Below are positions 18,064-49,922 of a stretch of 64,000 nucleotides of DNA, piece by piece. The notes under the pieces were generated by a model, which was not told the origin of the DNA, did not search any database, and was given only the letters and a program-made list of their open reading frames with translations. The stretch comes from Paenibacillus aceti (lineage in GTDB: Bacteria > Bacillota > Bacilli > Paenibacillales > Paenibacillaceae). Both the position numbers and the translations under genes were made by a program. The DNA lies in contig NZ_KZ987724.1 in assembly GCF_003614185.1 (NCBI RefSeq), positions 1,775,360 to 1,839,359 on the forward strand, given 5' to 3'. Position 1 is the stretch's first letter. Every line of letters begins with the position of its first letter.

Positions 18064-18299
18064 TGACGAACCGTAGTATCGCTACTTGCGCCAACAAGAG
18101 CTAATCCACACTCTAACGAAACTGAGCATCGCTATTTGCACCAAAAAGTGCTGATCCCAACTCTAATGAAACGGGGTATTGCTATTTGAGCAAAATGGAG
18201 TTCCTAAGCCATGTTTTCCTCTGAATAACGATATGGTGTACCGTTAAAAATTTTTTGCCGTTTGGTTTGGAGTAAATAGCGATATGGTGTTTCGTTAGA
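18064..18299. repeat. Interspersed repeat family A, copy 1 (five units, orientation flips)
   Basis: Five related units lie about 50 bp apart. Three read TCTAACGAAAC-N4-5-ATCGCTATTTG (near 18064, 18112 and 18162) and two are its reverse complement, AATAACGATATGGTG then TTTCGTTAGA (18222-18246 and 18274-18299). The first unit is degenerate. The block is intergenic, just upstream of the amidoligase gene's start. The same architecture recurs at 43297-43483. Confidence 0.85.
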
Positions 18300-18467
18300 A
18301 AGTCAACCGTCTCAAATATTGCAGCTTTTCGTATCTTCACGCTGGAAACTTACTCTCGCGCGGGGCGGTTCTCAAGGTAAAGGTCATATATTTACTAAAA
18401 TAACGGTTACTATGGAAACTTTTGTGCTGAACGAAGGCTTTACAGGTAATACGCAACAATCTGCAGT

Positions 18468-18665
18468 GGCTATAAGTGCTTATATGCAACTATTTTGGCT
18501 CCTTTCGCCCTCCATCGGGGATATAAGTGCTTTTGTGCAACTATTCAGACGGATCTCCTCTCCATTGAACTCCATTGAGGCTTAAATGGGCAGATAGTTG
18601 TATTTTCGCAGTTATTTTCTGATTTGGAGACCATTTTCCGGAAATAAGTGTATTTTTGCAGTTAT
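18468..18665. repeat. Interspersed repeat family B, copy 1 (four units)
   Basis: Units are GGCTATAAGTGCTTATATGC (18468), GGATATAAGTGCTTTTGTGC (18519), a diverged AGATAGTTGTATTTTCGCAG (18592) and GGAAATAAGTGTATTTTTGC (18640). Each continues with AACTATT or AGTTAT. The stretch between units 2 and 4 (ATTCAGACGG, GAGGCTTAA, CTGATTT, GGCCATTT-like) also matches the second copy at 49731-49922, in the same orientation. Confidence 0.82.
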
Positions 18666-18689
18666 CGGGCATCCCCGGCAAAAGTGCAG

Positions 18690-18722
18690 CAAAATAAAAA
18701 CAAAAAGAGGGCAGCCGCCCTC
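18690..18722 (-). terminator. Strong minus-strand terminator, probably for cotE
   Basis: GAGGGC-GGCT-GCCCTC on the minus strand is followed by TTTTTGTTTTTATTTT. It is 430 bp beyond the cotE stop. The only minus-strand content between them is the two 74-bp repeats, so either cotE has a long 3' UTR or a small RNA is made here. Confidence 0.72.
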
Positions 18723-18788
18723 GACGACGACGCCCCTGCCGCATATAGTAGACTATAATCCAACACCTAACTTGCTACATCTCCTGAA

Positions 18789-18862
18789 GAGGAAGTTCAA
18801 AAAGTTCGCCTTTGAGCACGATGGAATATCTGACAGACCATTCGACTGCGAATCTTGAATTC
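18789..18862. repeat. 74-bp direct repeat, copy 1
   Basis: It begins GAGGAAGTTCAAAAAG and ends CTTGAATTC. By reading, it is identical to 18977-19050. GTTCAAAAAG fragments of the same kind also occur near 3932 and 16354 in other intergenic gaps. Confidence 0.88.
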
Positions 18863-18976
18863 AACCGGGCCTACGGGTGCTCACGTACTCAAAACGTACG
18901 CTCCGCTCCCTCCGTCCCTAGTTTCATCCAACCTTCTTGGTGCTGAAAGCCCATCTTTTTGAACATGCATCGAAGT

Positions 18977-19050
18977 GAGGAAGTTCAAAAAGTTCGCCTT
19001 TGAGCACGATGGAATATCTGACAGACCATTCGACTGCGAATCTTGAATTC
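18977..19050. repeat. 74-bp direct repeat, copy 2
   Basis: Same 74 bp as 18789-18862, 188 bp further on. It is directly preceded by CTTTTTGAAC, which makes an inverted pair with its own GTTCAAAAAG. The unique DNA between the copies contains no ORF that I can support. Confidence 0.88.
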
Positions 19051-19154
19051 GTCGGCCGAGGGGCCTACTGGTGCTCAAGCCTACTCATCAGCGAATCCTG
19101 AACTCAGCCGGGGCTAGTGATAAGGTGTGGTGGCTCGCTTTTTGAAGCAGTCCC

Positions 19155-19697
19155 TTAAAGTTCGTCGTCGAGGAGGTCTGGATCTAAATCCTCGTAATCC
19201 TCGGAGTCAGATCCGAAATCATATTCTTTGTCTTCCACATTGCCAGGTACGACAAGAATATTCAGTTTCGTCTCTGCTACGAGTTCTACGGCGAATTCAC
19301 GTTCCACACGAATCGATACCCGACCGTCACCAGTCACGCTCGCTTCAACAGTGCTTGGCTCCTGCGTTGCCTCCGCAGTAACCTCGACCGTTGACGGGCG
19401 ATGTCTGGAATCCAGATAGTTCAGTGGAACATTCTCTACGTAAGACACCGTTTCTTTGGCAACCTCGGTCTGCGAATTTTTATCATAGGAGTACCAGATG
19501 TTGATATCGTAAGTACCAATAACTTCAATTCCGTCGCCGGCTGCTACCGCTTCATACTGGTGGTTGATAATCCAGGCCCCCAGTATGCTAGACGGCTTAT
19601 GAGGCGGAGTCACGGTATGTGTTACGGTAGAGAACTTACGACCTTTTCCGCAGATCGCTTTCGTTATAATCTCTCTACTTTGATAGTTCAATGACAT
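19155..19697 (-). CDS. cotE: Outer spore coat morphogenetic protein CotE
   Basis: The 180-residue protein directs outer coat assembly around the forespore, on the mother-cell side. It begins MSLNYQSREIITKAICGKGR, the typical CotE start, with GGAGGAGG upstream of ATG 19697. The middle (GIEVIGTYDINIWYSYDKNSQTEVAKETVSY) is well conserved, and it ends in a very acidic tail rich in Asp and Glu. Its position upstream of mutS matches Bacillus, but here the amidoligase gene and repeats lie between. A CATACACA element about 45 bp upstream could be part of a mother-cell sigma promoter; the match is weak. Confidence 0.96.
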   Translation of the reverse strand: MSLNYQSREIITKAICGKGRKFSTVTHTVTPPHKPSSILGAWIINHQYEAVAAGDGIEVIGTYDINIWYSYDKNSQTEVAKETVSYVENVPLNYLDSRHRPSTVEVTAEATQEPSTVEASVTGDGRVSIRVEREFAVELVAETKLNILVVPGNVEDKEYDFGSDSEDYEDLDPDLLDDEL

Positions 19698-19887
19698 GTT
19701 AGAACCTCCTCCATACATCATTCAATACATGTGTATGCGGGACATAGGCAAATGTTGAATATGTGAGCATAAATAATTATGTGAATGCCCATAAGTCAAG
19801 CATAGTCCAATAGCGATCCTTAAAAGCTATCCTTAAAAAATATATATGTAATGATAACTCAAAATATTTGTCTCAAATTAAAGACGC

Positions 19888-19926
19888 ATTAAAAAATCCC
19901 CGGGAAAATCTATTCCCGCGGGATTT
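19888..19926 (-). terminator. Terminator downstream of the FUSC/ArAE gene
   Basis: AAATCCC-GC-GGGAA pairs with TTCCC-C-GGGATTT on the minus strand, followed by TTTTTT. Confidence 0.82.
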
Positions 19927-19953
19927 GTTCGGTTTCATATAACGGATGAGTTA

Positions 19954-20934
19954 CTATAAATCACCTGTATCCTGTGCCGAAGCTTTCTGTGCCTGGCGCG
20001 CTTTGTCCTTTCTGGCGACTTCCAGATAGAAGCTCAGCTCATGGCATAGCTGGAGAAGATGGGCGCGCAGTTCGAATTCCTCTCGCGTGGAAGGCAGATT
20101 CATCGCTTTGAACTGCTGTTCAAGCTGATGCAGCATTTTCTCCGTCTGGCCTGTATAGAACTCCCGACTGACATCGACACTGAGGCGATCGAACAATGCC
20201 GCCATGGCCTCCCCCTGCGGAATACGTTCAAAGACTAGCGAGACAAGCTCCAGCATCCCCTCAATCCGCTCTAACTGCTGCTTACGCATATAGAAATAGA
20301 CGTTCCAGGCCTCATTGGGCGAGATCAACTGATTCTCCAGTGCCCGATTAGCGGAAGTCAGCCCCTCATCGACCAGCTTGCCTGCCTCAATTAACTCACT
20401 CCCATCCCACAGATGCTCCGGGTCACGCAGCGATTCAGCGATATGCTTGAAAATAACCGAGAACAGCCCGTCCACTTTACGGCGTATTTGCAGCAGTTTA
20501 TCCTCTTCCTTCGGCATATACAGTAAATTTACTAGCATAGCCGAGCCAAGACCGATGATAAGCAGTTCGATCTGGGTGGCCATAACTTGCAGACTGATCT
20601 CTTCGCCACCGAACACACGGAATACGACGACAGAGCTCGTGACAATGCCCTCTTTGAATTTAGCCCGGGCAATAATCGGAAAGGCGATCAGGATATAAAC
20701 CGCCAGCACCCAGATATGGAAGCCTAATATATAGAAAATAATAAATGCCATAATCAGGCCCAGCAAAGAAGCGAAGAACCGTGAGGATACGCTGGAAATA
20801 CTGCGCTTACGTGTCACATCAACTCCCAAAATCGCAAGCAACCCTGCAGATAGAGCTCCTTCTATACCTAGCGCATCAGATACAATAATAGCTAGCAGTG
20901 TGGCAATAGCTGTTTTAATAACTCTGAATCCCAT
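19954..20934 (-). CDS. Aromatic acid exporter family protein (ArAE_1, DUF939 / FUSC-like)
   Basis: About 326 residues. The N-terminal 130 residues form four to five membrane helices (VIKTAIATLLAIIVSDALGI, FFASLLGLIMAFIIFYILGF, IELLIIGLGSAMLVNLLYM). The rest is a helical cytoplasmic domain with many Leu and Glu residues. The family resembles the fusaric acid/aromatic acid exporters but is half their length and its transport substrate is unknown. ATG at 20934 has AAGGGTG close upstream; another ATG lies 15 nt earlier. It is a single-gene unit with its own terminator. Confidence 0.82.
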   Translation of the reverse strand: MGFRVIKTAIATLLAIIVSDALGIEGALSAGLLAILGVDVTRKRSISSVSSRFFASLLGLIMAFIIFYILGFHIWVLAVYILIAFPIIARAKFKEGIVTSSVVVFRVFGGEEISLQVMATQIELLIIGLGSAMLVNLLYMPKEEDKLLQIRRKVDGLFSVIFKHIAESLRDPEHLWDGSELIEAGKLVDEGLTSANRALENQLISPNEAWNVYFYMRKQQLERIEGMLELVSLVFERIPQGEAMAALFDRLSVDVSREFYTGQTEKMLHQLEQQFKAMNLPSTREEFELRAHLLQLCHELSFYLEVARKDKARQAQKASAQDTGDL

Positions 20935-21076
20935 CGAATCACCCTTCATGACAGTCTATAAATGCGTGATATACCTCTTAAGGTAACATTTCAATATTTA
21001 CACAAAAATAACCCACATTTCAAATTTCATTCCATCACCCTCCTTATTTTACAGACCGCGAGCCAAAAATGGCCAT

Positions 21077-21098
21077 AAAAAAAGGAGCTTACCGCTCC
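21077..21098 (-). terminator. Terminator overlapping the ABC permease stop codon
   Basis: GGAGC-GGTAA-GCTCC followed by TTTTTTT on the minus strand. The TAA stop codon of the permease gene lies inside the hairpin loop. Confidence 0.85.
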
Positions 21099-21925
21099 CT
21101 GACCAGTTTACGTTCAATATATACGACCAACTGATACATCGCTGTCGCCACGATAGCAATGATGACCAGACTGGATAGAACCAGCGTGAAATTAAAGACC
21201 TGAAATCCATAGACGATCAAATAGCCAAGTCCGATCTTGGCCACCAGGAACTCACCGACGATCACCCCTACCCAGGCCATGCCCACATTCACCTTCAACG
21301 TGGATACAATGGTGGGAAAAGAAGCCGGCAGGATCGCCTTCGTAAATACTTCTCGCCGCGAGCCGCCAAATGTGCGGATGACCTTGATCAAGTTTTGATC
21401 TACCTCATTGAAACTGTTATAGACGACAAGGGTCGTGACGATCACGGTAATCGACAACGTAGTGATGACAATCGCAGTATAGCCCGCTCCGAACATGACG
21501 ATGAAGATCGGGCCGAGGGCTACCTTCGGCATGCTGTTGAACACGACCATATAGGGGTCCAGTACCCTCGACAGGAAAGGCGACCACCAGATCACTACTG
21601 CCAGCGCCGTTCCTATTAACGTGCCGAGCAAGAAGCCGACCGCTGTCTCCGCCACCGTAATTCCTAAATGCGGCCACAGTTCTCCTGACAGAGCATCCTT
21701 GACGATTTGCTTGGCAACCTTGGAGGGATAACTAAAAATAAGGACGTCGATCCATTTCAACCGTCCAGCCAGCTCCCATAGCCCGATCAAAACTAGCAGT
21801 ATTGATAATTGAGTAGCCAGCACAAGACGCTTGCGCTTGGTCTTAAGCCGGCGATGCCCAAGCCATTGCTGCTTGATCCAGTCTTGCTCCTCATGCTTAA
21901 CCTTCAGAGTTTGCGTGAGAGACAT
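21089..21925 (-). CDS. ABC transporter permease, nitrate/sulfonate/taurine type (SsuC/ThiX-like)
   Basis: The 278-residue BPD_transp_1 membrane protein has six predicted helices, such as LSILLVLIGLWELAGRL and VGFLLGTLIGTALAVVIWW. The EAA-type loop for ATPase contact is seen at IKVIRTFGGSRREVFTKAILPASFPTI. It is third gene of an ABC operon (binding protein, ATPase, permease) and overlaps the ATPase gene by 29 bp. Substrate candidates are pyrimidine or thiamine precursors, sulfonates or riboflavin-like compounds; the sequence does not decide. Confidence 0.9.
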   Translation of the reverse strand: MSLTQTLKVKHEEQDWIKQQWLGHRRLKTKRKRLVLATQLSILLVLIGLWELAGRLKWIDVLIFSYPSKVAKQIVKDALSGELWPHLGITVAETAVGFLLGTLIGTALAVVIWWSPFLSRVLDPYMVVFNSMPKVALGPIFIVMFGAGYTAIVITTLSITVIVTTLVVYNSFNEVDQNLIKVIRTFGGSRREVFTKAILPASFPTIVSTLKVNVGMAWVGVIVGEFLVAKIGLGYLIVYGFQVFNFTLVLSSLVIIAIVATAMYQLVVYIERKLVRER

Positions 21926-22706
21926 TCTTCAGCCCCCTCTCCTCCAGCGTCTCCAGATCACGCCAGATTTCCTGAAACAACTCGTTGAAGCCTTCCTCTT
22001 CTCGGGCGTAGAACGGCTGCATCTGCCGGATATTATCCGGAATCATATAGGTGCTCCTGATCCTGCCCGGCTTCGCAGCCAGCACGATGACCCGATCGCT
22101 TACGGCGATCGCCTCGGACAAATCATGAGTCACCAGGATTCCGGTCTTGCCCCGCTGCCGCAGCGTATCGACGACCAGATCCTCAAGCTGCAGCTTCGTC
22201 TGGTAATCCAGCGCCGAGAAGGGCTCATCGAGCAGCAGTAAATCCGGATCTGTAGCAAGCGTCCTGACGAGCGCAACCCGCTGTCGCATCCCTCCAGACA
22301 GCTGATGCGGATACTGATTTGTCGTATTTCCAAGTCCCATCCCATCCAGCAAGTCCTGCACCATCAGACTGCTCTCCTCATTAAGCCGCCCTGTCAGCTC
22401 CAGGCCAAGCTGGGCATTGCTCAATATAGTCCGCCAAGGAAACAAATAATCCTGCTGCAGCATATAGCCGATCTCTGGCGTCGGTCCTGTAATCGGCTTC
22501 CCATGCAGCAGCACCTGCCCCCTGGACGGGGACAATAGTCCGGCAATCAGTGATAGAAGCGTGGTCTTGCCGCAACCGCTAGGGCCAACCAGGCTGATGA
22601 ATTCACCGGCATCGACGGCTAAATTCAGCCCCTTGAGTGCAAGTATCGCTTCCCGATCCGTTAAATATAAATGATCTAAATCCCTCAGTTCTACGACAGG
22701 AACCAC
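21897..22706 (-). CDS. ABC transporter ATP-binding protein (SsuB/TauB/NrtD type)
   Basis: The 269-residue ATPase has Walker A GPSGCGKTT, Q-loop MLQQDYLFPW, signature LSGGMRQR, Walker B LLLLDEPFSALD and the switch His in VTHD. It powers uptake together with the overlapping permease gene and the upstream binding-protein gene. Translation starts at GTG with GGGAGTG upstream. Confidence 0.93.
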   Translation of the reverse strand: MVPVVELRDLDHLYLTDREAILALKGLNLAVDAGEFISLVGPSGCGKTTLLSLIAGLLSPSRGQVLLHGKPITGPTPEIGYMLQQDYLFPWRTILSNAQLGLELTGRLNEESSLMVQDLLDGMGLGNTTNQYPHQLSGGMRQRVALVRTLATDPDLLLLDEPFSALDYQTKLQLEDLVVDTLRQRGKTGILVTHDLSEAIAVSDRVIVLAAKPGRIRSTYMIPDNIRQMQPFYAREEEGFNELFQEIWRDLETLEERGLKNVSHANSEG

Positions 22707-22739
22707 TGCTCACACTCCCTTTTCGTCCGGATAAGATAA

Positions 22740-23741
22740 TTACTTGCTACTGGCCTGTACAGCAGATTCCGCAAATTCATTGTTCACTACACTGCCTATC
22801 TCGACCCGCTGCTTCAGCTCTCCGGCACTATCCATCACATCCAGCAAGTTGTTCCAGGCGTCCTCTTGCAGAGCTGGTGTCTTTGCATAAGTCCCTTGCT
22901 CAAGATAGCGCTTCACAGAGCTGATGAGAATATCCATATCCGTATCCTTGAAGTAAGGAGCGATCACTTCCGCTGTCTCCTCGGGAGTATGGGCTCCGAC
23001 CCAGACCTGGGCCTTATAAATGGCATTGGTGAACTTCTGGATCATATCCTTATGCTTCTTCATATAGCTCTGCTTCGTCATAAACACGGTATAGGGCAGC
23101 TGTCCACTCTCGGTTCCAAATGAAGCGACAACATGGCCCCTGCCTTCCCGTTCAAATATCGAGGCTTGCGGCTCGAATAATTGCACATATTGACCCGTTC
23201 CTGATGAGAACGCAGCGGCGATATTGGCAAACTCGATATTCTGAATCAGCTCCAGATCAGCATGAGGATCGATACCGTTCTTCTTCAGCGTAAATTCACC
23301 GGCCATCTGCGGCATTCCGCCTTTACGCTGACCGAGGAACTCGCTCCCCTTCAGCTCCGACCAATTGAACTCCCCCGGTTCTTCCCTGGCTACGAGGAAG
23401 GTACCGTCCGTCTGGGTCAATTGCGCGAAGTTAATCACCGGATCATCGGCTCCTTGCTGATATACATAGATAGATGTCTCCGCACCGACCAGGGCCACAT
23501 CGATCGCTCCTGACAACAGCGCTGTCATCGTCTTATCCCCGCCCGCTGTCGTCTGTAATTCCACGTCCAGGCCTTCTTCCTTGAAGAAGCCCTTCTCCAG
23601 CGCGACATACTGCGGCGCGTAGAATACCGAGCGCGTAACTTCACCGATCTTCACCTTCGATGCTCCCCCAGCGCACCCCGACAAGCCCCATGTAAAGAGC
23701 AGCAGCAGTGCGATCAACATCATCAAATGGCGTTTGAACAT
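22740..23741 (-). CDS. ABC transporter substrate-binding lipoprotein (SsuA/THI5-like)
   Basis: The 333-residue lipoprotein has a signal peptide (MFKRHLMMLIALLLLFTWG) and lipobox LSGC. The mature part fits the NMT1/THI5-like or SsuA fold: VTRSVFYAPQYVALEKGFFKEEGLDVELQT, then TALLSGAIDVALVGAE. ATG at 23741 has GAGGTG 6 nt upstream, better than the ORF's first possible start. It is the first gene of the operon. The exact ligand is not readable; aminopyrimidine-type or sulfonate-type ligands are equally likely. Confidence 0.9.
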   Translation of the reverse strand: MFKRHLMMLIALLLLFTWGLSGCAGGASKVKIGEVTRSVFYAPQYVALEKGFFKEEGLDVELQTTAGGDKTMTALLSGAIDVALVGAETSIYVYQQGADDPVINFAQLTQTDGTFLVAREEPGEFNWSELKGSEFLGQRKGGMPQMAGEFTLKKNGIDPHADLELIQNIEFANIAAAFSSGTGQYVQLFEPQASIFEREGRGHVVASFGTESGQLPYTVFMTKQSYMKKHKDMIQKFTNAIYKAQVWVGAHTPEETAEVIAPYFKDTDMDILISSVKRYLEQGTYAKTPALQEDAWNNLLDVMDSAGELKQRVEIGSVVNNEFAESAVQASSK

Positions 23742-23769
23742 GCCTTTCACCTCTTTCGCAATAACCAAT

Positions 23770-23809
23770 AATTAGGCTTCTAATTAAAGTGTATGCGTCA
23801 GTTAGGCAA
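23770..23809 (-). promoter_or_regulatory. Candidate promoter and dyad upstream of the ABC operon
   Basis: On the minus strand TTGCCT (23804-23809), 17 bp and TAATTA (23781-23786) form a plausible sigma-A promoter. A perfect dyad AATTAG-GCTT-CTAATT (23770-23785) overlaps the -10 box and could be an operator. Confidence 0.45.
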
Positions 23810-23820
23810 ATGGTTAAGCA

Positions 23821-25425
23821 CTATCGATCAGAACGGCTCTGCCGATAAACGACCTGGTCGTTCACCACAGTCATTTGGACAAGATCCTCCAGTAGCATAT
23901 CCGTCTCACCATAAAAAGGGTCCTGCCGCAGAATCGTAAAATCCGCCGCATGGCCTGCTTCAATCAAACCGCGCTTCCCTTCATGACAGGCCGCATACGC
24001 ACTGCCCTTCGTATACAATGAGATCGCTTCATACATCGTAAGCTTCTCCTTCTCCCCATATACGGCGGTCTGGCCAGGCTGCGTTCGCGTGACGGCCGCA
24101 TGTATGCCCAAAAGTGGAGATACCCTCTCGATCGGCGCATCCGAACCGCCAGCACATGCAATGCCCCTTGCTGCAAGAGTATGCCAGGCATACAGCAGCA
24201 GTCCCTCGGGATCGCCGATCCGCTGCATGACCCAAGGGAAATCCGAGGTCACGAAGCTAGGCTGTATGTCGGTGATTATAGGTATATCGCTCATTTGCTC
24301 AATCAGCTCAGGCCGTAGGATTTGCCCATGAATCAGCCTGTCCCTCTTGCCTTCAGGACAAGGATACTTCTTAAGCAGTCTGAGCATCTTGACAGCGGCC
24401 TCATCTCCGATCGCATGAAAAGCGACGGCCAGACCCCACTTTCTCGCCCTAATCACTAGCTGCTCCAGTTCCTCATCCGTATGGACCGCAACGCCCCGGG
24501 TCGTTGGATCATCTGCATAAAGCCTGCTGAGCAGGGCGGTTCTCCCGCCAAGCGCACCATCGACAAACAGCTTCATCGCGCCAAATTCAAGCAGCGGAGA
24601 TTCGCTGGCCTGTCCCTTATGTTCCATCAGCCATTCATCCAAGGCCAAATGATGGACGAGCAAATGAGCTCGGAAAGGCCTCTGTCGTGCATGGAGCACC
24701 TGATGAAATGCCCTTATCGTCCGAGCGCAGCTACCGTAATAGCTCAAATCCTCCGTATGACAGCCTGTTAAGCCTTTGGACCAACAATCTTCAATCGCGG
24801 CTTCAAGCGCCGTAGCCAAATATTCATCTGTCGCCCCCGGTATGGCTGCAAGGACCAGCTGTTGGGCCTGCTCCTTAAGGATGCCATTCAATTTCCCGCT
24901 TGCGCTTCGTCCCAGGACACCGCCTTCAGGTATAAGGGGATGCTCATCCATTCCAGCTGCATCGAGTGCAGCCGAATTGACGGCAAGCATATGTCTACAT
25001 ACTCTCCACAGTAGAACCGGATGTTCCGGGGCGACCTGATCAAGCAGTTCCCGCTCCGGCAATCCCGAATCCGACCACTCATTCTCGTTCCATCCTTCAC
25101 CGATGATCCACATGCCTTGCGGCAGTAATGCAGTCTGTGCCCTCACTCTCTCCAGCACCTCTTCCCTGCTCCGGCAATCATTTAACTGCAGCCTGAGAAA
25201 GGTTTCACCATGCCCGATTAAATGCATATGACTGTCCACAAAGCCCGGAAACATCACACCGCCTTGCAGATCCTCTATCCGTACGATCTGTCCCTCATAC
25301 TGCCGCCTCAATTCACTCATGCAGCCCGCACCGAGTATGACTCCGTCCGCCGTATATACCGCCTCCACGGTATGAAGCTCCTCCTTCATCGTATAAATTG
25401 TACCGCCCATCCACAGCGTCCCCAT
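23821..25425 (-). CDS. Amidohydrolase family protein (YtcJ-like)
   Basis: The 534-residue metal-dependent hydrolase is of the Amidohydro_3 type. The HxH metal pair is in GFVDSHMHLIGHG, later ligands are likely in FHAIGDEA and IHGQILRPE, and the C-terminal motif GGSDAPIERVSPLLGIHAAVTR is typical of YtcJ. The substrate of this group is unknown. ATG has AAAGGAGGAG upstream. The gene lies upstream of the ABC operon on the same strand with a 79-bp gap containing that operon's promoter. Confidence 0.88.
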   Translation of the reverse strand: MGTLWMGGTIYTMKEELHTVEAVYTADGVILGAGCMSELRRQYEGQIVRIEDLQGGVMFPGFVDSHMHLIGHGETFLRLQLNDCRSREEVLERVRAQTALLPQGMWIIGEGWNENEWSDSGLPERELLDQVAPEHPVLLWRVCRHMLAVNSAALDAAGMDEHPLIPEGGVLGRSASGKLNGILKEQAQQLVLAAIPGATDEYLATALEAAIEDCWSKGLTGCHTEDLSYYGSCARTIRAFHQVLHARQRPFRAHLLVHHLALDEWLMEHKGQASESPLLEFGAMKLFVDGALGGRTALLSRLYADDPTTRGVAVHTDEELEQLVIRARKWGLAVAFHAIGDEAAVKMLRLLKKYPCPEGKRDRLIHGQILRPELIEQMSDIPIITDIQPSFVTSDFPWVMQRIGDPEGLLLYAWHTLAARGIACAGGSDAPIERVSPLLGIHAAVTRTQPGQTAVYGEKEKLTMYEAISLYTKGSAYAACHEGKRGLIEAGHAADFTILRQDPFYGETDMLLEDLVQMTVVNDQVVYRQSRSDR

Positions 25426-25532
25426 ATAACTCCTCCTTTCTTGCCAGCCAGTAACATTTAAATCTACGAATCTGCGATGTCTTCCCGTGCTAATCCTTGT
25501 GACGGACGATTGCCCGCACCAACTCAGTATCT

Positions 25533-25612
25533 GAGAATTCCTGCAAATATGTAGGTTTTCACTCTCAAAGTCACCTGTGCTTAGGAAATTCCTGCAAATG
25601 TGCAGGCTTTTC
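25533..25612. repeat. Interspersed repeat family C, copy 1 (two units)
   Basis: GAGAATTCCTGCAAATATG (25533) and GGAAATTCCTGCAAATGTG (25584), each followed by AGG or CAGG and TTTTC, are 51 bp apart. The 25426-25824 gap holds this repeat and a long hairpin and no gene. Confidence 0.75.
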
Positions 25613-25716
25613 TGGAATTACAGCTCTAGCTCAGATACCGCCGCCGAATCCAACCAGCCCAACCGACAATTCCACACTCGCACTCACTGATCCGTCCAAT
25701 ATACTGCCAATACTAC

Positions 25717-25774
25717 AAGAAGCCCGTCTGGAATGGTTGCGTTAGCACTGCCATTTACCAAGGACGGGCTTCTT
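25717..25774. terminator. Long hairpin, probable terminator of the carboxypeptidase gene
   Basis: A perfect 12-bp outer stem (AAGAAGCCCGTC with GACGGGCTTCTT) encloses a second stem (TGG, AATGG with CCATT, CCA). It lies downstream of the minus-strand carboxypeptidase gene. The U-tract is poor on either strand, so termination is probable but not certain. Confidence 0.6.
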
Positions 25775-25824
25775 ATTAAGATTTAATTATGCATATATGC
25801 GTACAATTGTCTGAATCGCATGTG

Positions 25825-28066: not shown

Positions 28067-28120
28067 CTTTCGTTTGCAAGCAAATTTACCGCATGAGCAT
28101 AGAAAGGAAGATAGCAAGCT

Positions 28121-41197: not shown

Positions 41198-41428
41198 TAC
41201 GGCGTTCTCTCCCATCTGGCATTTAGCAGTTTTCTGTAAAGATTATCATAGTTGCGGGGCTTTTCACAGGGCCAAAGTCAGTTATAATTGTTTATGGTCA
41301 ATCAAGATTCATCCACCAGTAGCATGGAGACAGATAAATAAGGTACAATAACTACCGATGATTGCCCGCTGCAATTGAACACCGGGGCACTAATGAACTA
41401 CCTTTGTTGGAAGGAAGGAAAACGATAA

Positions 41429-42292: not shown

Positions 42293-42294
42293 GG

Positions 42295-43056: not shown

Positions 43057-43106
43057 GCTGGCCCAGCCGTGTTTTGTTTTGGCCATGCCATGGGGCTCGG
43101 CATCTT

Positions 43107-43150
43107 AAGGCCATCCGATTGGGTATTGTTATCGGATGGCCTTCTTAATT
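43107..43150 (+). terminator. Terminator after the pseudouridine synthase gene
   Basis: Perfect 13-bp stem AAGGCCATCCGAT with ATCGGATGGCCTT, then CTTAATTCTT. Confidence 0.87.
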
Positions 43151-43162
43151 CTTCGCGCAGCT

Positions 43163-43250
43163 CGAAAACTGCAAATATGCAGCATTATCGCAGGAATTTA
43201 CCCTGGCCGGGCGGATTGTATGCGAAATTCCTGCATAATTGCAGGTTTAG
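43163..43250. repeat. Interspersed repeat family C, copy 2
   Basis: CGAAAACTGCAAATATGCAG (43163), with an inverted CGCAGGAATTT shortly after, and GCGAAATTCCTGCATAATTG followed by CAGGTTT (43222). It is about 50-60 bp from unit to unit. It is related to 25533-25612. Confidence 0.7.
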
Positions 43251-43296
43251 ACCATTGTATGACTTTGAGAACGCCAAAACAGAGGCTGCTCTTGAT

Positions 43297-43483
43297 TGTA
43301 ACGAAACTGCGTATCGCTATTTGCCCCCAATGGAGCCATTTCAAAATCTAACGAAACTGGGGATCGCTATTGCGACAAAAAAGGGGCTAAACGGCAGACT
43401 TTCACCCGAATAACAATATGGTGTTTCGTTAGATTTAATTTGTTGCTGATTTTGCGAAAATAACGATATGGTGTTTCGTTAGA
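43297..43483. repeat. Interspersed repeat family A, copy 2 (four units, orientation flips)
   Basis: Forward units GTAACGAAACTGCGTATCGC (43297) and TCTAACGAAACTGGGGATCG (43347) are followed by reverse units AATAACAATATGGTGTTTCG (43409) and AATAACGATATGGTGTTTCG (43459), each ending TTAGA. The spacing is 50 bp within each pair. The whole 43057-43505 gap holds only a terminator and repeats of families C and A. Confidence 0.85.
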
Positions 43484-43505
43484 GCTCCGGGAGACTTCCT
43501 AATGC

Positions 43506-44101
43506 TTATTCAACAGCCTGATCAGACAGATGTCCGGCGCAATTGAACAGCTCGCATGCCCACTTCGAGCCACAGCCACCATTATGTTTAATTATTGTTA
43601 CCGCTGTATTGTGCATATGCTGGTCTATATTTTGCTCAGGAATCAACGCTTTGACAGTATAACTGATCAGCGCTCCGTGGCTGAAGATAAGGACATTCTG
43701 TCCCTTATGATGATGCAGAATCTCGGAGATGATTGAAATTCCCCGCGCTGTAATCGACTCCCTCGATTCAATTCCTAACTCCAGTTCTCTCCAGTCTTGC
43801 CCCCATCTGGCAATCCTCTCTTCAAGCGTCGTTCCTTCGGTCTCCCCCTTATGCATTTCTCTAAGCCGCTCATCTGTAGCGACCGTTAAGCCCAGCACTG
43901 TTCCAACAAGCTCGCCGTTTCTTGAGCTCGTGACAGGTCACTAGAGTAAATACAATCCCATCCTCCAGCCCGCAACCGCTCTGCCAGTAACCGAGCCTGC
44001 CATCTGCCTATATCATTCAATGGAATATTTGACTGGCCTTGTGCCCGTCGCTCCCGGTTCCAATCAGTAATTCCGTGTCGGATCAGTCCCAGTCTGGTCA
44101 A
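43506..44101 (-). pseudogene. Histidine phosphatase (phosphoglycerate mutase-like), one frameshift
   Basis: The first 71 codons (TTG start, GGAGGTG upstream) encode LGLIRHGITDWNRERRAQGQ, with the catalytic RHG, and run to AQETASLLEQ before a stop. The continuation LGLTVATDERLREMHKGETEG, with the second-pocket Glu, and IFSHGALI, with the second His, is in another frame starting near 43898. One missing base around 43890-43898 accounts for the break. Together the parts give a normal family length of about 195-200 residues, with all catalytic residues present. It may be a real inactivation or a sequencing error. Confidence 0.85.
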
Positions 44102-44252
44102 TCTGCACCTCCATTCTCGAATTTACAGTACCATTAATGCTTTGTAGTTCTAACAAGTAGCTCCGTATTCCTGCTTAAATCAGTAAAAAAGGAAAAAGAG
44201 GACATGCATAAAGCATGCACACCCCCTTCTCTCAGCTATCCTTTGAAACTGG

Positions 44253-46061
44253 TTATAACGTGTAATTAATGGTCATTTGAGACACTTGCTTCTCCCAGGA
44301 ATCACTACCCGATAGCTCGACCTTCAGGTATTGAGTGCCTGCTGGCGGCAATTCTACGGAGTAATAAGTTTTCTGGTACCACTTGCTACCTGTGTAAACT
44401 CCCGGAGTGCTTGCGTGAGCTAACTTCGTCCAGTTCTCCTGATCAGAGGACACATAAAAGGCGATTCCGTCCCAGACACTAAATTGATAGAATACGGCTT
44501 GGAATGAGGTGATGTTCGGAATATTGTACACGAAGCTCTCCGTTGTACCATCCAGCCTTTTAACTCTCGAGGCATCGCCATTAAAATAACCGCTATTGCT
44601 GGAATCCATCACAAGCCCGCTAGTATGAGAAAATGTCTTTGACCAGTCGTCCAAATCATCAACGAGAGTCTGCTCTTGGGGAGCAGGTGCCGAGCCATTT
44701 TCACCTACAAATGTGACAACACTCTTCGCAGGTATGATCGTTTGGAACTTTCCTCCAGTTGAAGGGATTGCCGCCCCTTGGGCCAAATTCATTTGATCAT
44801 CGGTGGTATAAGGCGTCAATGAGCCTGACATAAATCCATTAGGGACTAGATTAACCTCTGCGGTGGCATCCCCATTATTGATCGCTACAATCGTGAACTT
44901 ATCAGTTGCCGGGTCTTTATAGGCCGAGATATAGACATTCGATTTCGGATTCTCCGGTGCGCCAATCCGTACATATCCCGGCTTGATGAACTTGCTGAAA
45001 TTGCCTAGTGTATAGTAGCGCTTCGTAATCTTATAGGTGCTGGTATTTTTATCAACATTAATCAATCCTTCATCATTGTCGCCCGGAATCGCCCCTGTCC
45101 AGTACAGCCATGCATTGACGCCTGCCTTGGTCATGAAGTCATGGGTTTGCTTAGCGAATTTGAGCCCGGAGTTGATGCCAGGATCATAGGAGTCTACCTT
45201 GGATACCTCGGTCATCCATACCTTTTTGCCTTTGGAGACAGCGGTTGAGAAAGGTGTTGTCGGAAGCTCTACGTTCAGAATTGGAATCGGGTAGTTGTGA
45301 CCGCCGACGATATCCAGTCTTTCTGCGGAAGCCGGATCATTCAAAGAATCCTTGATCAGATCCTCAGACCACCAGGAGGACTCGCCAGCGATCACCTTGG
45401 TGGAGGACACCCCCTCATCAATCATCGCTTGCTTCAAATAATCCTTCAGAAAGACCTGAAAATTCGTTGAATTCCATTCTGATGAATCCCAGGTTAAGAA
45501 GGTCATGGCGTTCGGTTCATTGGCTATGGAAACGGCATAGAGATCAAGATCAAATTGTTGCTTGTATTCCTTGATAAATTTAGACATCAGAAGTGCGTAA
45601 TCACCGTAGTTCTCCTGCTTCAGATACCCGCCATGGGTTGTAGAATTATTCGTCTTCATCCAGGCAGGCGGGCTCCAGGTCGATGCTACAAGCTTGTCAA
45701 CTCCCCTTGCCTTGGCCTGCTGCATCACCCATACCTGATCCGGTCTTACTGTAAAGTCAAATTGGCCCGGGGCAGGATTGTATTCGGCGAATAAAGCTCC
45801 GCGAAGAATAGAGAGGCCGATCCCATTATCCTGCGTAAATAACAGATCCATTATTTGGCTTCTTGCGGGTTCCTGTAAATCATAAATGGCACCCGACCAT
45901 CCGGCCTGCGAAACCCCAAAACCATCGATTTCCTGCTTCACGTCATTCCAGTTGATGCTGACGTCTGTTGCAGCATGTGCGTTAAGTGGTACGATCATAA
46001 GCGTCAGGAGTAGTGTGCTCATCATTACAGCCATTCGTTTTTTAAGACTCTTTGTCCTCAT
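44253..46061 (-). CDS. Secreted glycoside hydrolase family 30 (glucuronoxylanase-like) with C-terminal carbohydrate-binding domain
   Basis: The 602-residue secreted protein has a signal peptide (basic MRTKSLKKR, hydrophobic core, cleavage near AHAA). The catalytic barrel starts WNDVKQEIDGFGVSQAGW; the acid/base Glu is in SIANEPNAMTF and the nucleophile Glu in WMTEVSK. A beta-domain (to about 455) and a C-terminal sandwich domain (about 470-602) that looks like a CBM follow. Plant xylan or another beta-glycan is the probable substrate. ATG at 46061 has AAAGGTGG upstream. A cre box lies 43 nt further up, so catabolite repression by CcpA is likely. Confidence 0.9.
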   Translation of the reverse strand: MRTKSLKKRMAVMMSTLLLTLMIVPLNAHAATDVSINWNDVKQEIDGFGVSQAGWSGAIYDLQEPARSQIMDLLFTQDNGIGLSILRGALFAEYNPAPGQFDFTVRPDQVWVMQQAKARGVDKLVASTWSPPAWMKTNNSTTHGGYLKQENYGDYALLMSKFIKEYKQQFDLDLYAVSIANEPNAMTFLTWDSSEWNSTNFQVFLKDYLKQAMIDEGVSSTKVIAGESSWWSEDLIKDSLNDPASAERLDIVGGHNYPIPILNVELPTTPFSTAVSKGKKVWMTEVSKVDSYDPGINSGLKFAKQTHDFMTKAGVNAWLYWTGAIPGDNDEGLINVDKNTSTYKITKRYYTLGNFSKFIKPGYVRIGAPENPKSNVYISAYKDPATDKFTIVAINNGDATAEVNLVPNGFMSGSLTPYTTDDQMNLAQGAAIPSTGGKFQTIIPAKSVVTFVGENGSAPAPQEQTLVDDLDDWSKTFSHTSGLVMDSSNSGYFNGDASRVKRLDGTTESFVYNIPNITSFQAVFYQFSVWDGIAFYVSSDQENWTKLAHASTPGVYTGSKWYQKTYYSVELPPAGTQYLKVELSGSDSWEKQVSQMTINYTL

Positions 46062-46103
46062 TTCAAAACCACCTTTACTTTTAAAATGATGTGGCCAAGG
46101 ATT

Positions 46104-46117
46104 TGAATGCGCTTTCA
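46104..46117. promoter_or_regulatory. Candidate cre box (CcpA site) upstream of the GH30 gene
   Basis: TGAATGCGCTTTCA is a near-palindrome with one mismatch to TGWNANCGNTNWCA. It lies 43 nt upstream of the GH30 start codon, where binding would block transcription. Confidence 0.65.
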
Positions 46118-46267
46118 AATAAAATTTGAAGCCGAGTCTTTATTCCTCCCTTCCTCGTTCTTACATGCTTACTCGACGATTATAAACAGGTAAATCGAAT
46201 CGGGCTACCATAATTGTGACTTAAACCTGTTCTTATGGTGACTTCTTATTCGATTTTCAGCTAGAGT

Positions 46268-46316
46268 GAAAAAAGAAACGCCCCAGCATCAAATTATTTG
46301 ATCACTGGAGCGTCTC
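46268..46316 (-). terminator. Terminator-like hairpin in the leader of the GH30 gene
   Basis: On the minus strand GA-ACGCTCCAG and ATCAAAT pair with ATTTGAT and CTGGGGCGT, followed by TTCTTTTTTC. No minus-strand gene lies directly upstream of it; the next gene upstream is on the plus strand. It could insulate the GH30 gene or act as an attenuator. The remainder of the 46062-46390 gap has the cre box and otherwise nothing recognisable. Confidence 0.65.
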
Positions 46317-46390
46317 AAAGGTCTATTTTCCCGTATAATATCAGTATCTGTATTTAGAGTTCTAACAAAGCTAATGTGAGAGGTTACTCT

Positions 46391-47071
46391 ATGAATAAAT
46401 GGTTGAAAGCATTGCTATTCCTGCTAGGCGCTGCAATTCTGACCCGGTTCATTCCCTTCTCGGGATGGTTCCGTATTATCGATACGATGTTTCATGAGCT
46501 AGGTCATGCTATTCTGACCCTGCTCCTGTCCGGTAAGGTGCTGCGCATCGTGCTGAATCCCGATCACAGCGGGGTCACCTATTCCATTCTGCAGCCGGGC
46601 TGGAGCCAATTCATCGTGTCTCTTGCTGGCTATATCACAGCTTCCTTATGCTCAATTGCCATGTTCTTCGGCTATTACAAGCAAAAGCAAGCAGCCGGGC
46701 TCATCGCCATTAGTGTCGTCGCACTGACCACGGTTGTCTTATTCGTACACTCGGGGTACGGACTGTGGTGGCTTCTCTTTTTCATTCTGGTGAATCTGCT
46801 GTTCTATTTTATTGGCGGACGGGTCCGCAATTTCTATTATTTGCTGCTAGCCTTCCTATGTTTAGAGGAATCGGTGGTTGGTCCGATCTTCCTGCTGGCA
46901 CAATCGATCCTTCACCCCGATCAAGCAGGCGATGCCACCAACTTGGCGAATATGACCATCCTGCCTGCTGTGGTGTGGGCCTTATTATTCGTGCTGATCG
47001 CATGCTTATGCGCTAGACTGGCATTACAATTCTATTGGAAAATCGGCAGCCGTGCTCAACGGAACGGATAG
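46391..47071 (+). CDS. M50-family membrane metallopeptidase (M50B-like)
   Basis: The 226-residue protein has the zinc motif HELGHA in the first third (DTMFHELGHAILTLLLSGK) and about six membrane helices. It fits the M50B-like family found in Bacilli and has no PDZ domain. The LDG-type second motif of site-2 proteases is not evident, so the protein may not be an active intramembrane protease. ATG at 46391 has GAGAGG upstream. It converges with an MFS gene. Confidence 0.83.
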   Translation: MNKWLKALLFLLGAAILTRFIPFSGWFRIIDTMFHELGHAILTLLLSGKVLRIVLNPDHSGVTYSILQPGWSQFIVSLAGYITASLCSIAMFFGYYKQKQAAGLIAISVVALTTVVLFVHSGYGLWWLLFFILVNLLFYFIGGRVRNFYYLLLAFLCLEESVVGPIFLLAQSILHPDQAGDATNLANMTILPAVVWALLFVLIACLCARLALQFYWKIGSRAQRNG

Positions 47072-47136
47072 CGCTTAGCTCATCAGAAACTCCATATGGA
47101 CATCAACAATGTCCCGTAAAATATCCAGGTTGGCCC

Positions 47137-48561
47137 TTACGCTTGCAGCTGGACGCTATGCTCTTTAGCAAGGTCTGCTACAGGCCTTCTAATGAACAAG
47201 GAAAGAGCAATATTAACTACAGCTAGACAAAAGCTGATGATAAATACAAATGAAGTCCCGGCAGCAGTAGCACCTGGCAAGTCATTCGCGAAGCCGGACA
47301 GATAGCTGCTTTGCTTCGTAGCGAAAAGAGAGACCATGACAGCAATCCCTACCGCACCGGATACTTGTTGAGAGGTTTGTGTAATAGCAATGCCATCTGG
47401 ATAATATTGCATCGGCAGTGCATTTAATGTATTCGTCTGTACTGATGCCAGCACCATACCAACTCCAAGCATCATTATAAGATGGGTGACCACCATAATC
47501 CATAGAGCTGTCTCTGTCCCATACAGGGCATATAGTCCATAACCTACAGCAACAAGAATAGTCCCAGGTGTAATTACAGCACGGGGCCCATATCTGTCAA
47601 ATAATCGGCCAATCGTCGGCGCTAGAATACAATTCAGTAGGCTACCTGGAAGCATGATCAAACCAGTCATAAATGCTGAAACCAGAAGAGCCATCTGCAA
47701 ATACATCGGTAGTATTACAAGCATCGATAGCATATTCAAGAAGGTGATCATATTCATCAATAGACCTAATATGAACACTGGATACCGGAATGCCTGCAAA
47801 TTTAACATAGGTTGCTCTAACTTGGTCTGACGGATAGCAAATAAAATCAATGCTATCATTCCTACAATAATTGTTCCTATAACAAGCTGGCTCGTCCAGC
47901 CATAATCCCCTCCGACACTTACACTATACACTATGCCGCCGAAACCAATCGTGGATAATACAACGGACAGCATATCGATCGATACCTTACGAGTTTCATT
48001 CACATTTGGAATGTGAACGAAACCGAAGATCAGCGAGAACAATAAGAATGGAGTGGTGAACCAGAAGATCCAATGCCAGGATAGCATATCCAATATCATT
48101 CCTGCTAATGTAGGGCCAAAAACTGGACCCGCTAAAGTGACGAGGCCCATTACCCCCATCGCCATCCCCCGTTTCTGAGGCGGGTAAATCGTGAAAATCA
48201 CATTCTGTGTTAAGGGAAGAATAATCGCCAGCCCGGCAGCTTGAATTACGCGCGCTATCAACAACACGCTAAATATCGGCGCTAATGCAGCAAGAAAAGT
48301 ACCTACTATTGATAAAATTAAAGATGTCATAAACATCTGGCGTGTAGTGAACTTCTGCATTAAGATGCCTGTTACCGGAACCAAAATACCAAGTGTTAAG
48401 AAATACCCTGTAGCTAACCACTGAATCGTCGTAGCATCAGTATTAAAAATATTGATTAAGTCCCCCAGTGCTATATTGAGTGCCGTTTCACTAAACAGAC
48501 CCACAAAGCCAGCAACTAAGAGAGCCGCCATAATAGGTCCTGTTTTGATACTTTTATTCAC
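47137..48561 (-). CDS. MFS drug efflux transporter, DHA2 family (LmrB/EmrB-like)
   Basis: The 474-residue protein has about 14 membrane helices, with motif A-like GILMQKFTTRQMFM and motif C VTLAGPVFGPTLAGMILDMLSWHWIFW. It resembles B. subtilis LmrB, a lincomycin/puromycin-type pump. It starts at GTG 48561 with GGAG upstream. The start overlaps the end of a TetR-like stub in another frame, and operator-like palindromes lie upstream, so its repressor has probably been lost and expression may be constitutive. Confidence 0.92.
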   Translation of the reverse strand: MNKSIKTGPIMAALLVAGFVGLFSETALNIALGDLINIFNTDATTIQWLATGYFLTLGILVPVTGILMQKFTTRQMFMTSLILSIVGTFLAALAPIFSVLLIARVIQAAGLAIILPLTQNVIFTIYPPQKRGMAMGVMGLVTLAGPVFGPTLAGMILDMLSWHWIFWFTTPFLLFSLIFGFVHIPNVNETRKVSIDMLSVVLSTIGFGGIVYSVSVGGDYGWTSQLVIGTIIVGMIALILFAIRQTKLEQPMLNLQAFRYPVFILGLLMNMITFLNMLSMLVILPMYLQMALLVSAFMTGLIMLPGSLLNCILAPTIGRLFDRYGPRAVITPGTILVAVGYGLYALYGTETALWIMVVTHLIMMLGVGMVLASVQTNTLNALPMQYYPDGIAITQTSQQVSGAVGIAVMVSLFATKQSSYLSGFANDLPGATAAGTSFVFIISFCLAVVNIALSLFIRRPVADLAKEHSVQLQA

Positions 48562-48637
48562 TTAAAAGAACTCCTTCAATCATTTTTTGGAAAGTCGCGA
48601 TGTCGACGTCAGCGATAATTTTTCCTTTTATTGTGAG
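48554..48637 (-). pseudogene. C-terminal stub of a TetR-type regulator
   Basis: In the frame that ends AGT GAA TAA across the MFS start, about 26 codons read IKGKIIADVDIATFQKMIEG plus VLLSE, which looks like a TetR-family C-terminus. In-frame TAG and TGA codons close it at the 5' side. In Bacillus lmrAB the TetR repressor gene lies directly before the pump gene, often overlapping it. The rest of the regulator is absent here. Confidence 0.45.
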
Positions 48638-48664
48638 TGCACTCTATCATTTCCGATCGGTCTG
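48635..48664. promoter_or_regulatory. Operator-like palindromes upstream of the MFS gene
   Basis: GAGTGCACTC (48635-48644) is a perfect 10-bp palindrome. AGACCGATCGG on the minus strand (about 48653-48663) resembles the AGACCRGTC core of the LmrA/YxaF operator. Both lie upstream of the pump gene where its own repressor would bind. Confidence 0.4.
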
Positions 48665-48779
48665 TTTTTAAATATAACAAAAATAAAATTTCTGATGTAA
48701 GTGTTTTTTCTACGCTCTATATGTAAAATTCATATTTTGGACAAACTTTTTCTCAGAAAATCCCTCTTTCAGGTACATA

Positions 48780-49406
48780 TTAGGACAAAACTTGAGTCTC
48801 CTTCAAAGTCGCCTGCACATCCCGCTCCGGATTTATGCTTCGGATCAGATCTTCACTGACAACTGCGCCGTTATAAATCTCTTCAACTGCATACTCCGGC
48901 AGCTCCAGCTCATAGTAATCCTCGGCCCAATCCACATAATCGGCCGCTGCTTCATAGATCATTCCTAAGAGGAAGCTCGAACCATCATTTAGTCCTGAAG
49001 AATCTACGTCGCCACAGTTCCATACTGTATCTCCACACTCTCTCCACAAGCAGAAGGTTACATCTTCCTTGCAGAGTGAATCATCATTCAGCCGGGCCAG
49101 CAGAGCGGGTGGCACCTGCTCGTAAATTCCCGGCCAAGCCTCGCCATCCTCTCGAGCATAGGGACTCATTTCCGATTCATGATCAAATCCCTTGATTATG
49201 ATTCCTTCAGGGGCGAACACAAGATAAAGCTCATCCCCGGCGCCATTACTGATGCTGAACAATTCTGCATCTTCTTCCCACTGCGGATTGTACTGGTATC
49301 TGCGCAGCCAATCCTCCGAGCACAATATAATATCCAGTGTACTCATCGCAATTAAATTCCGTCTTAACTGTTCCGGTTCCATAAAAGGCTTGGGCCATTT
49401 ACGCAT
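48780..49406 (-). CDS. Uncharacterised acidic protein
   Basis: I do not recognise this 208-residue protein. It is strongly acidic, without signal peptide or membrane helix, with segments such as FAPEGIIIKGFDHESEMSPY and PALLARLNDDSLCKEDVTFCLW that resemble predicted cytosolic proteins of the DUF2262/YfbM-like kind found near toxin-immunity loci, but I cannot assign a family. ATG at 49406 has GGAG 8 nt upstream. It has no clear operon partner; the next element upstream is a LysE-like stub. Confidence 0.7.
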   Translation of the reverse strand: MRKWPKPFMEPEQLRRNLIAMSTLDIILCSEDWLRRYQYNPQWEEDAELFSISNGAGDELYLVFAPEGIIIKGFDHESEMSPYAREDGEAWPGIYEQVPPALLARLNDDSLCKEDVTFCLWRECGDTVWNCGDVDSSGLNDGSSFLLGMIYEAAADYVDWAEDYYELELPEYAVEEIYNGAVVSEDLIRSINPERDVQATLKETQVLS

Positions 49407-49421
49407 AGTTTCCACTCCATT

Positions 49422-49655
49422 CTATTCTATACCCCTGGCTGGTGAGTATTTGAACGCTAAATATAACATATAACCTACGCCAAAGATCGTCAAAGGTAGC
49501 TCAATCATCGGCATAAATCGGACAAGCAATATATTAAAAAAACTGCACAATACAATAATAGCAAAAATTCCCGCGCCAACGCCGAAACAAGTAAAACGAT
49601 GATTGGACAAATTGAGCGAGGGGAGTCCATCCGCTTTAGGGCTGACCGACCCCAC
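49422..49655 (-). pseudogene. LysE-family exporter, N-terminal fragment
   Basis: The 77-codon frame reads GAGIFAIIVLCSFFNILLVR and MIELPLTIFGVGYMLYLAFK, which matches helices 2 and 3 of LysE/EamB exporters. In place of the conserved TPGPNN motif it has SPKADG, and the C-terminal half (three helices) is missing: the frame stops after AFKYSPARGIE. It is therefore a decayed remnant. Assignment is by pattern only. Confidence 0.6.
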
Positions 49656-49730
49656 ACCTACTATAATGCTGGGGAGATGATGACCCGATTGAGCATGACC
49701 ATCTATTATCCGGCTTATTAGGGGTTAGAG

Positions 49731-49922
49731 GATGAATAACTGCATATATGCAACTAAATTTGCCCTAGAGGCGCTCCATAGCGGATATAACTGCTTTTCT
49801 GCAACTATTCAGACGGTTCTCGGCTGATCGAGGCTTAAGCTCAGGAAATAGTTGTATATTCGCAACTATTTCCTGATTTCAAGGCCATTTACCGAGGAAT
49901 AAGTGCATTATTGCAACTAATT
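49731..49922. repeat. Interspersed repeat family B, copy 2 (four units)
   Basis: GATGAATAACTGCATATATG (49731), GCGGATATAACTGCTTTTCTG (49781), GGAAATAGTTGTATATTCGC (49844) and GGAATAAGTGCATTATTGC (49896) each lead into CAACTA. They correspond in order and orientation to the four units at 18468-18665, including the linking ATTCAGACGG and GAGGCTTAA. The 49656-49961 gap contains nothing else. Confidence 0.82.

What the first reader, a model, noticed from the sequence alone, without database searches (positions are those of the whole stretch)
18064..49922. Three interspersed intergenic repeat families share a 25-30 bp core and a 50-bp period
Families A (18064-18299, 43297-43483), B (18468-18665, 49731-49922) and C (25533-25612, 43163-43250) each appear at two distant intergenic sites. 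In all three, successive cores are 48-52 bp apart. Families A and B switch orientation halfway, so each block is a large imperfect palindrome. Cores of B and C both contain TGC-N4-5-TGCA, so they may be one superfamily. Blocks of different families lie next to each other (A then B near 18 kb; C then A near 43 kb). The fixed period with varying linkers suggests a selected protein-binding or RNA-folding unit rather than simple duplication.
Basis: partly seen in the sequence, partly recalled or inferred. Interest (0 to 1): 0.7.

Follow-up and report, generated by a model that had tools for sequence, protein, structure and literature searches.

The report
Four-box DNA repeats with fixed spacing
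Bacteria of the Paenibacillus family carry up to hundreds of short intergenic DNA elements built from four similar boxes at a nearly invariant spacing, with boxes and spacing kept between species while the DNA between them drifts, which points to an unknown protein complex that reads them.

Summary
A, B and C are families of one kind of ~185-bp intergenic element: four ~23-bp cores in a dyad (→ → ← ←) at about 50/62/50 bp. The window's genome has 250 matches to one A core pattern and none to the reversed control. B and C merge into one core, TGCA-N4-TGCA. That core, paired at 50-51 bp, occurs in 103 of 395 genomes of the family, but in 2 of 361 of the class outside it, once each. With spacing free from 32 to 62 bp, 75 of 75 sites that I could see listed (3 of 20 genomes) stand at 50, 51, 61 or 62. 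In five element pairs at matching places, not chosen by spacing, cores are 91% identical and linkers 69%; gap openings are 2 in 454 linker columns against 45 in 1090 flank columns. I found no base-pair covariation that would support RNA or hairpins, and Y1 transposases are missing from 14 of 20 carriers tested. Best reading: a dispersed duplex-DNA site read by a protein complex; the protein and the way of spreading are unknown. My paper searches found no report of it.

The parts
18064..18299 (+). Family A element, polarity LLRR on +, four units (model match 18111-18299) plus a degenerate extra left unit about 50 bp upstream (3+2 units)
   Evidence: nhmmer model A, score 145, E 2e-42
18472..18665 (+). 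Family B element, four cores at 18472, 18523, 18594, 18644 (steps 51/71/50; the central step is about 10 bp longer than usual)
   Evidence: model B, score 155.7
25537..25616 (+). Family C element, incomplete: cores at 25537 and 25588 (51 bp apart)
   Evidence: model C positions 4-80, score 57.6
43165..43248 (+). Family C element, incomplete: left-unit remnant at 43165 fused to units 3-4 (last core at 43227)
   Evidence: model C positions 116-185, score 51.5; the fusion is read by eye
43297..43483 (+). Family A element, complete, unit starts 50/62/50 apart
   Evidence: model A, score 178.1, E 1.4e-52
49736..49920 (+). Family B element, complete: cores at 49736, 49787, 49848, 49899 (51/61/51)
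   Evidence: model B, score 152.5

Best explanation
Each block is a copy of an intergenic DNA element of about 185 bp with four sequence-specific sites in a dyad (→ → ← ←) at about 50/62/50 bp. Shown: the geometry; its near constancy over copies, over two unrelated core sequences and over genera; and, at matching places in different species, cores that change more slowly than linkers while linker length is kept. Inferred: each core is bound as duplex DNA by a protein, perhaps a homodimer since the cores are near-palindromes, and four bound sites are locked into one complex (bridged or wrapped) that measures the distance between them. Whether it measures absolute distance or helical phase is open. 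A and B/C would be read by the same or related proteins. Also inferred: a chromosome-wide role (architecture, insulation) rather than control of one neighbouring gene, because copies sit in any intergenic context and either orientation. How copies spread is not known.
For: Geometry; other genera: of 7 loci found by a single A core, 3 show the full 50/62/50 row, 1 shows 50 and 113, 3 show one core only; of 12 loci chosen for a 50-51 pair, 5 show the full row; of 58 full A elements in stretches not chosen by spacing, 52 were scorable; 38 have exactly 50/74/50 between boxes, 13 differ by 1-2 bp, 1 by 8. Selection: five pairs at three sites from unselected stretches: core 417/458, linker 314/454 (Fisher 4e-17); gap openings linker 2, flank 45 of 1090 columns (2.7e-5). 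Nine further pairs, with one (3) or both (6) sides found through the fixed-spacing pattern, point the same way but are biased for exact boxes and spacing. Duplex rather than pairing. No context preference: (112 of 115 copies intergenic; flanking-gene arrangements close to those of background gaps). Rfam: no match; one match at E 0.92 to a nematode snoRNA.
Against: No binding protein, transcript or phenotype is known. The unbiased selection test rests on five family A pairs at three sites, three of them one site in three species; in two of the five (own against G212 and G202) linkers are no more alike than many random cross-species pairs (percentiles 0.45 and 0.82), so separate insertions at one place cannot be excluded there; the two pairs above the 99th percentile give core 173/184 and linker 147/182 (p 1.3e-4), and the third G202/G212 pair lies at 0.9897. 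Family A members differ more in linkers than in cores anyway (random pairs: core 83%, linker 49%). No such test was made for B/C. Many sites are lineage-specific and copy number is patchy, which fits a mobile element. The B copy at 18472 has a central step of 71 bp, and A cores 2 and 4 show a small pairing excess (z about 4).
Confidence: 0.48

Rival explanations
1. Non-autonomous mobile element in the manner of REPINs, BIMEs or MITEs: an unidentified transposase or recombinase recognises the four sites and its synaptic complex sets the geometry; copies are selfish, and the conservation of cores mostly reflects the active source copies.
For: Lineage-specific sites, subfamilies with linked linker variants, patchy copy number from 0 to 232 pairs between species of one genus, arrays of units and whole elements in Paenibacillus sp. 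GM2, intergenic location without gene context.
Against: Cores and spacing kept in place at matching sites (small unbiased set). No Y1 (REP/IS200-type) transposase in 7 of 8 other genomes with A matches and in 7 of 12 genomes rich in B/C pairs; other transposase families were not searched. No gene carried by an element was recognised among the genes in 20 intervals between neighbouring elements (judged by eye). No target-site duplication could be defined.
Confidence: 0.36
2. Structured RNA or ssDNA hairpin element: pairing of facing cores or within cores is the function.
For: Cores are inverted repeats; folding energies are low (mean z -2.3 to -7.3, 20 elements per family), as any inverted repeat would give.
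Against: No compensatory covariation for cores 1:4, 2:3, 1:3 or linkers, nor within C cores (same-arm fraction 0.198 against 0.210 permuted, 86 cores). Similar fold scores on both strands. No preference for a gene end. No credible Rfam match.
Confidence: 0.09
3. Bidirectional transcription terminators or mRNA 3'-end stabilisers, suggested by C cores such as AAAGCCTGCA-N4-TGCAGGCTTT.
For: Single C cores look like terminator hairpins.
Against: No clear enrichment between convergent genes or at 3' ends. The arms of C cores vary independently. A cores have short stems. The spacing would be unexplained.
Confidence: 0.05
4. Chance or recent segmental duplication of two loci.
For: None beyond the window.
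Against: Hundreds of matches genome-wide with reversed controls at or near zero.
Confidence: 0.01

Closest known systems
REP sequences / REPINs mobilised by RAYT (TnpA-REP) transposases (passages of PMC3116915 and PMC3733652 read; other papers seen in listings)
   Same: High-copy, extragenic, near-palindromic short units in inverted arrangements; clusters
   Different: Four units at about 50/62/50 rather than a doublet; no Y1 transposase in most carriers tested; no covariation supporting hairpins; core sequence differs between families while the geometry is kept
BIMEs, bacterial interspersed mosaic elements (named in PMC3116915 and in the start of the abstract of PMC2817692, listing; details recalled)
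   Same: Units of several families next to each other (C beside A in the window and elsewhere); more than one orientation
   Different: Order and spacing are kept over a whole bacterial family; no binding partner is known here, whereas that abstract says BIMEs and REPs serve as binding sites
MITEs such as bcr1 of Bacillus cereus (named in a passage of PMC3733652; size recalled)
   Same: Short, intergenic, many copies, no coding capacity
   Different: No target duplication or parent insertion sequence found; four internal sites and their spacing are constrained

Membership tests
REP / REPIN | RAYT (Y1) transposase gene in the carrier genome | tested here: not met
   PF01797: the own genome has 14 equally scoring 157-aa copies, read as an IS200-type element rather than a single-copy RAYT (interpretation recalled); absent in 7 of 8 other genomes with A matches and in 7 of 12 B/C-rich genomes
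REP / REPIN | High-copy extragenic palindromic units of 20-40 bp | tested here: met
REP / REPIN | Inverted units form hairpins (REP doublets) | tested here: inconclusive
   Inverted arrangement present, but no covariation
REP / REPIN | GTAG or CGTC tag at the foot of the unit | tested here: not met
   Read by eye on the consensus elements; the tags are taken from the title of PMC3733652
MITE | Terminal inverted repeats | tested here: inconclusive
   A ends TCTAACGAAAC...GTTTCGTTAGA are inverted; B ends are not perfectly so (consensus)
MITE | Target-site duplication and a parent element | tested here: inconclusive
   Empty-site comparison did not resolve the borders; no autonomous copy recognised (by eye)
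Rfam RNA families | Match at the gathering threshold | tested here: not met
   whole window; two stretches, E up to 1: none, and one at E 0.92
Protein-bound operator or architectural array | Sequence-specific binding at each core and dependence on spacing | not testable with these tools
   Inferred

The most novel reading that the evidence does not exclude
An undescribed chromosomal site shared by a whole bacterial family: a four-site DNA docking array with geometry 50/62/50 on which an unknown protein complex of fixed size assembles at tens to hundreds of intergenic places per genome. Unrelated core sequences (TAACG...CGTTA and TGCA-N4-TGCA) would have arisen for related proteins while the geometry of the complex stayed unchanged across genera; copies are seeded by an unknown mobility and then kept by selection.
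Probability: 0.35. Interest if true: 0.88.

Novelty: new variant of a known kind. Interest (0 to 1): 0.73.

Why it matters
Interspersed repeats in bacteria are usually explained as selfish hairpins moved by a transposase. Here the striking constant is a distance: four sites with linkers whose letters drift while their length is kept, in two unrelated core sequences, across a bacterial family. That makes a direct biochemical prediction (one complex, one ruler) with a simple spacing-mutant test, and could reveal a chromosome-organising or mobility system that annotation does not show. About a quarter of the longer intergenic gaps in the window's genome carry a copy (107 of 411 gaps of at least 200 bp, by simple ORF calls, in the 1.6 Mb examined).

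Tried and rejected
Long-hairpin model: linkers do not pair with each other. Covariation by mutual information: the signal is subfamily structure, with no nested Watson-Crick pairs among the top pairs. Strand or replichore bias of A polarity: suggested by the exact matches listed, not upheld overall (A: 5 plus and 18 minus in 1-400 kb, but 8/10, 8/6 and 7/7 in the other three stretches). Terminator, promoter or riboswitch placement: no context preference (open frames of which more than 40% was element were removed before that count). Y1 transposase. Autonomous parent element: 20 intervals between neighbouring elements; the 14 frames whose sequences I printed look like ordinary chromosomal genes plus a group II intron type reverse transcriptase, judged by eye without a family search. 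Empty-site border mapping: flanks too diverged. Plasmid and phage records: no similar sequence for one A element. Viral contigs: two hold an A-type four-box element; 113 match the B/C pair pattern, not examined and with no chance estimate. One search used a wrong pattern (three N instead of four) and is not counted. Integron attC and replication-terminus sites were considered from memory only.

Full report
OBSERVATION. The six blocks are present as described. The window lies at 1775360-1839359 of a 5.57-Mb contig of an unnamed 5.6-Mb genome. One A core pattern (3 mismatches allowed) has 250 matches in that genome and none for the reversed control. I fetched four stretches of 400 kb of it and parts of three relatives of the same genus.

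ANATOMY. Weight-matrix scans of two own stretches and two relatives show A neighbours at 48-51 or 60-63 bp, with two exceptions (37 and 42 bp) and some steps near 100 bp or more; B/C neighbours lie at 49-52 or 61-63 bp, with exceptions at 11-12, 39, 71, 114 and 169 bp. The 71-bp step is the window's B block at 18472. Blocks are four units in a dyad, and incomplete blocks keep the register. The B and C matrices converge on one palindrome with TGCA-N4-TGCA at its heart. Iterated oriented profiles give elements of 188 (A), 184 (B) and 186 bp (C), each with a clear polarity. I did not test whether A is homologous to B/C. Of 58 full-length A elements in stretches not chosen by spacing, 52 had four scorable boxes: 38 have exactly 50/74/50 between boxes, 13 differ by 1-2 bp, and one has a step of 42. 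The larger count (155 of 175) includes loci found by that very spacing and is not used as evidence.

DISTRIBUTION. In the window's genus 5 of 41 genomes match the generic A core: four with 84 to 246 hits, one with a single hit; one other genome has one reversed-control hit. The A consensus (3 mismatches) occurs in 12 of 197 genomes of the family, the own one included. Of seven loci from other genomes found by a single core, three show the full 50/62/50 row with other linkers, one shows 50 and 113, three show one core only at the threshold used. The B/C pair at 50-51 bp is in 103 of 395 family genomes and 16 of 19 genera, up to 232 pairs per genome; by my count of the listing 36 genomes have ten or more, and four genomes match the reversed control. 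Many of the 103 have only one or two. In 398 genomes of the class, 37 of them in the family by my count, two of the 361 outside it match, once each. With spacing free from 32 to 62 bp in 20 genomes, all 75 plus-strand sites that the capped listing shows stand at 50, 51, 61 or 62 bp (by eye: 37 of 37 and 25 of 25 in two genomes, 13 of 54 in a third; the other 17 genomes give counts only; four of the 75 lie in two 62-bp tandem repeats). Spacings above 62 bp were not open to that search. Of twelve loci from one other genus, chosen for a 50-51 pair, five show the full row. One A element found nothing in the plasmid and phage records.

SELECTION. Flank matching after masking elements gave 44 occupied comparisons and 16 with matched flanks but no A element. 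I kept 14 distinct pairs of full elements in the same polarity; dropped were reciprocal or repeated pairs, pairs without two full elements, and two pairs in opposite polarity. All 14: core 91.5% of 1286 columns, linker and centre 68.5% of 1268, flanks 74.0% of 3002; gap openings 4, 8 and 177. Nine of the 14 have one (3) or both (6) sides found through the fixed-spacing pattern, which favours exact boxes and spacing. The five pairs from unselected stretches, at three sites, give core 417/458 (91.0%), linker 314/454 (69.2%), flanks 878/1090 (80.6%), and gap openings 4, 2 and 45 (core against linker 4e-17; linker against flank gaps 2.7e-5). Flank gaps are raised somewhat by alignment ends. Random cross-species pairs of unselected elements average 83.2% in cores and 49.3% in linkers (584 pairs). 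The three G202/G212 pairs lie at percentiles 0.9983, 0.9897 and 0.9914 of linker identity, so they descend from one insertion; the two pairs with the own genome lie at 0.45 and 0.82 and could be separate insertions. The two above 0.99 give core 173/184 and linker 147/182 (p 1.3e-4). In the 200 kb compared, four of four G202 places with an A element are also occupied in G212. Of six own A places in 1.6-2.0 Mb with matched flanks, two are occupied in both relatives, one in one relative but in opposite polarity, and three are without an A element where they could be compared.

MECHANISM. Pairing does not appear to be what is kept: no compensatory signal between facing cores, between linkers, or inside C cores against permutation, except a small excess for A cores 2 and 4. 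Elements lie between genes (112 of 115 with more than 80 model positions) without preference for a side or for convergent gaps (simple ORF calls). The inference is sequence-specific binding of duplex DNA at four sites with contacts that fix their distance. No pair at 40-41 bp, one helical turn less than 50-51, appears among the 75 listed sites, but one turn more than 62 was not open there, and the window's own B copy has just that (71 bp), so helical phase remains possible. The binding protein is unknown.

SPREAD. Lineage-specific sites, subfamilies and arrays show that copies multiply. The REPIN route is unlikely: Y1 transposases are absent in 7 of 8 other genomes with A matches and 7 of 12 B/C-rich genomes, and in the own genome they are 14 equally scoring IS200-like copies. 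Other transposases were not searched. No parent element was recognised, and borders or target duplications could not be fixed.

PRIOR WORK. Library searches for Paenibacillus with interspersed, palindromic, MITE or repetitive-DNA terms listed nothing on such elements among the titles and abstract starts shown. In PMC3733652 I read the two passages found; Paenibacillus does not occur in its main text. In PMC3116915 I read twelve passages on doublets and singlets. All other papers were seen only in listings. Subscription papers and preprints are not covered.

VERDICT. The geometry is shown widely; the constraint in place is shown on a small unbiased set; the bound complex and its role are inferred.

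Noticed in passing
window 18789 and 18977: Two tandem copies, 188 bp apart, of another repeat (GAGGAAGTTCAAAAAGTTCGCC...); a large part of the many matches listed for this stretch in three relatives falls on it, in tandem with a period of about 184-187 bp in G212.
   Followed up: partly
window 144-617, minus strand: IS200-like Y1 transposase ORF of 157 aa; 14 equally scoring copies in the genome.
   Followed up: partly
own contig 774616-777862: A group II intron type reverse transcriptase (by eye) lies between two A elements; one of the two overlapping frames reported runs through a masked stretch.
   Followed up: no
own contig 1-80000: No A, B or C element in the first 80 kb, where the GC skew changes sign, although about one per 10 kb is usual in the rest of that stretch; 3173 bases there are masked.
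   Followed up: no
L442 (viral contig): A-type four-box element with exact box spacing but different inner half-sites (GCTTATT/AATAAGC in the inner units), hinting at further core families.
   Followed up: no
G212 contig 10 near 2188440-2189750; L234, L251, L263, L291: Whole elements or single units amplified in tandem (periods about 200-360 bp); at the first place G202 holds one element with an extra unit and the own genome only the two inner units.
   Followed up: partly
L026: An A element is cut within its second unit by what looks, by eye, like an insertion sequence.
   Followed up: no
own contig, for example window 43165-43483: Part of the A elements share longer flanks (12 of 46 on the left side) and stand beside C-type units, a mosaic arrangement.
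   Followed up: partly
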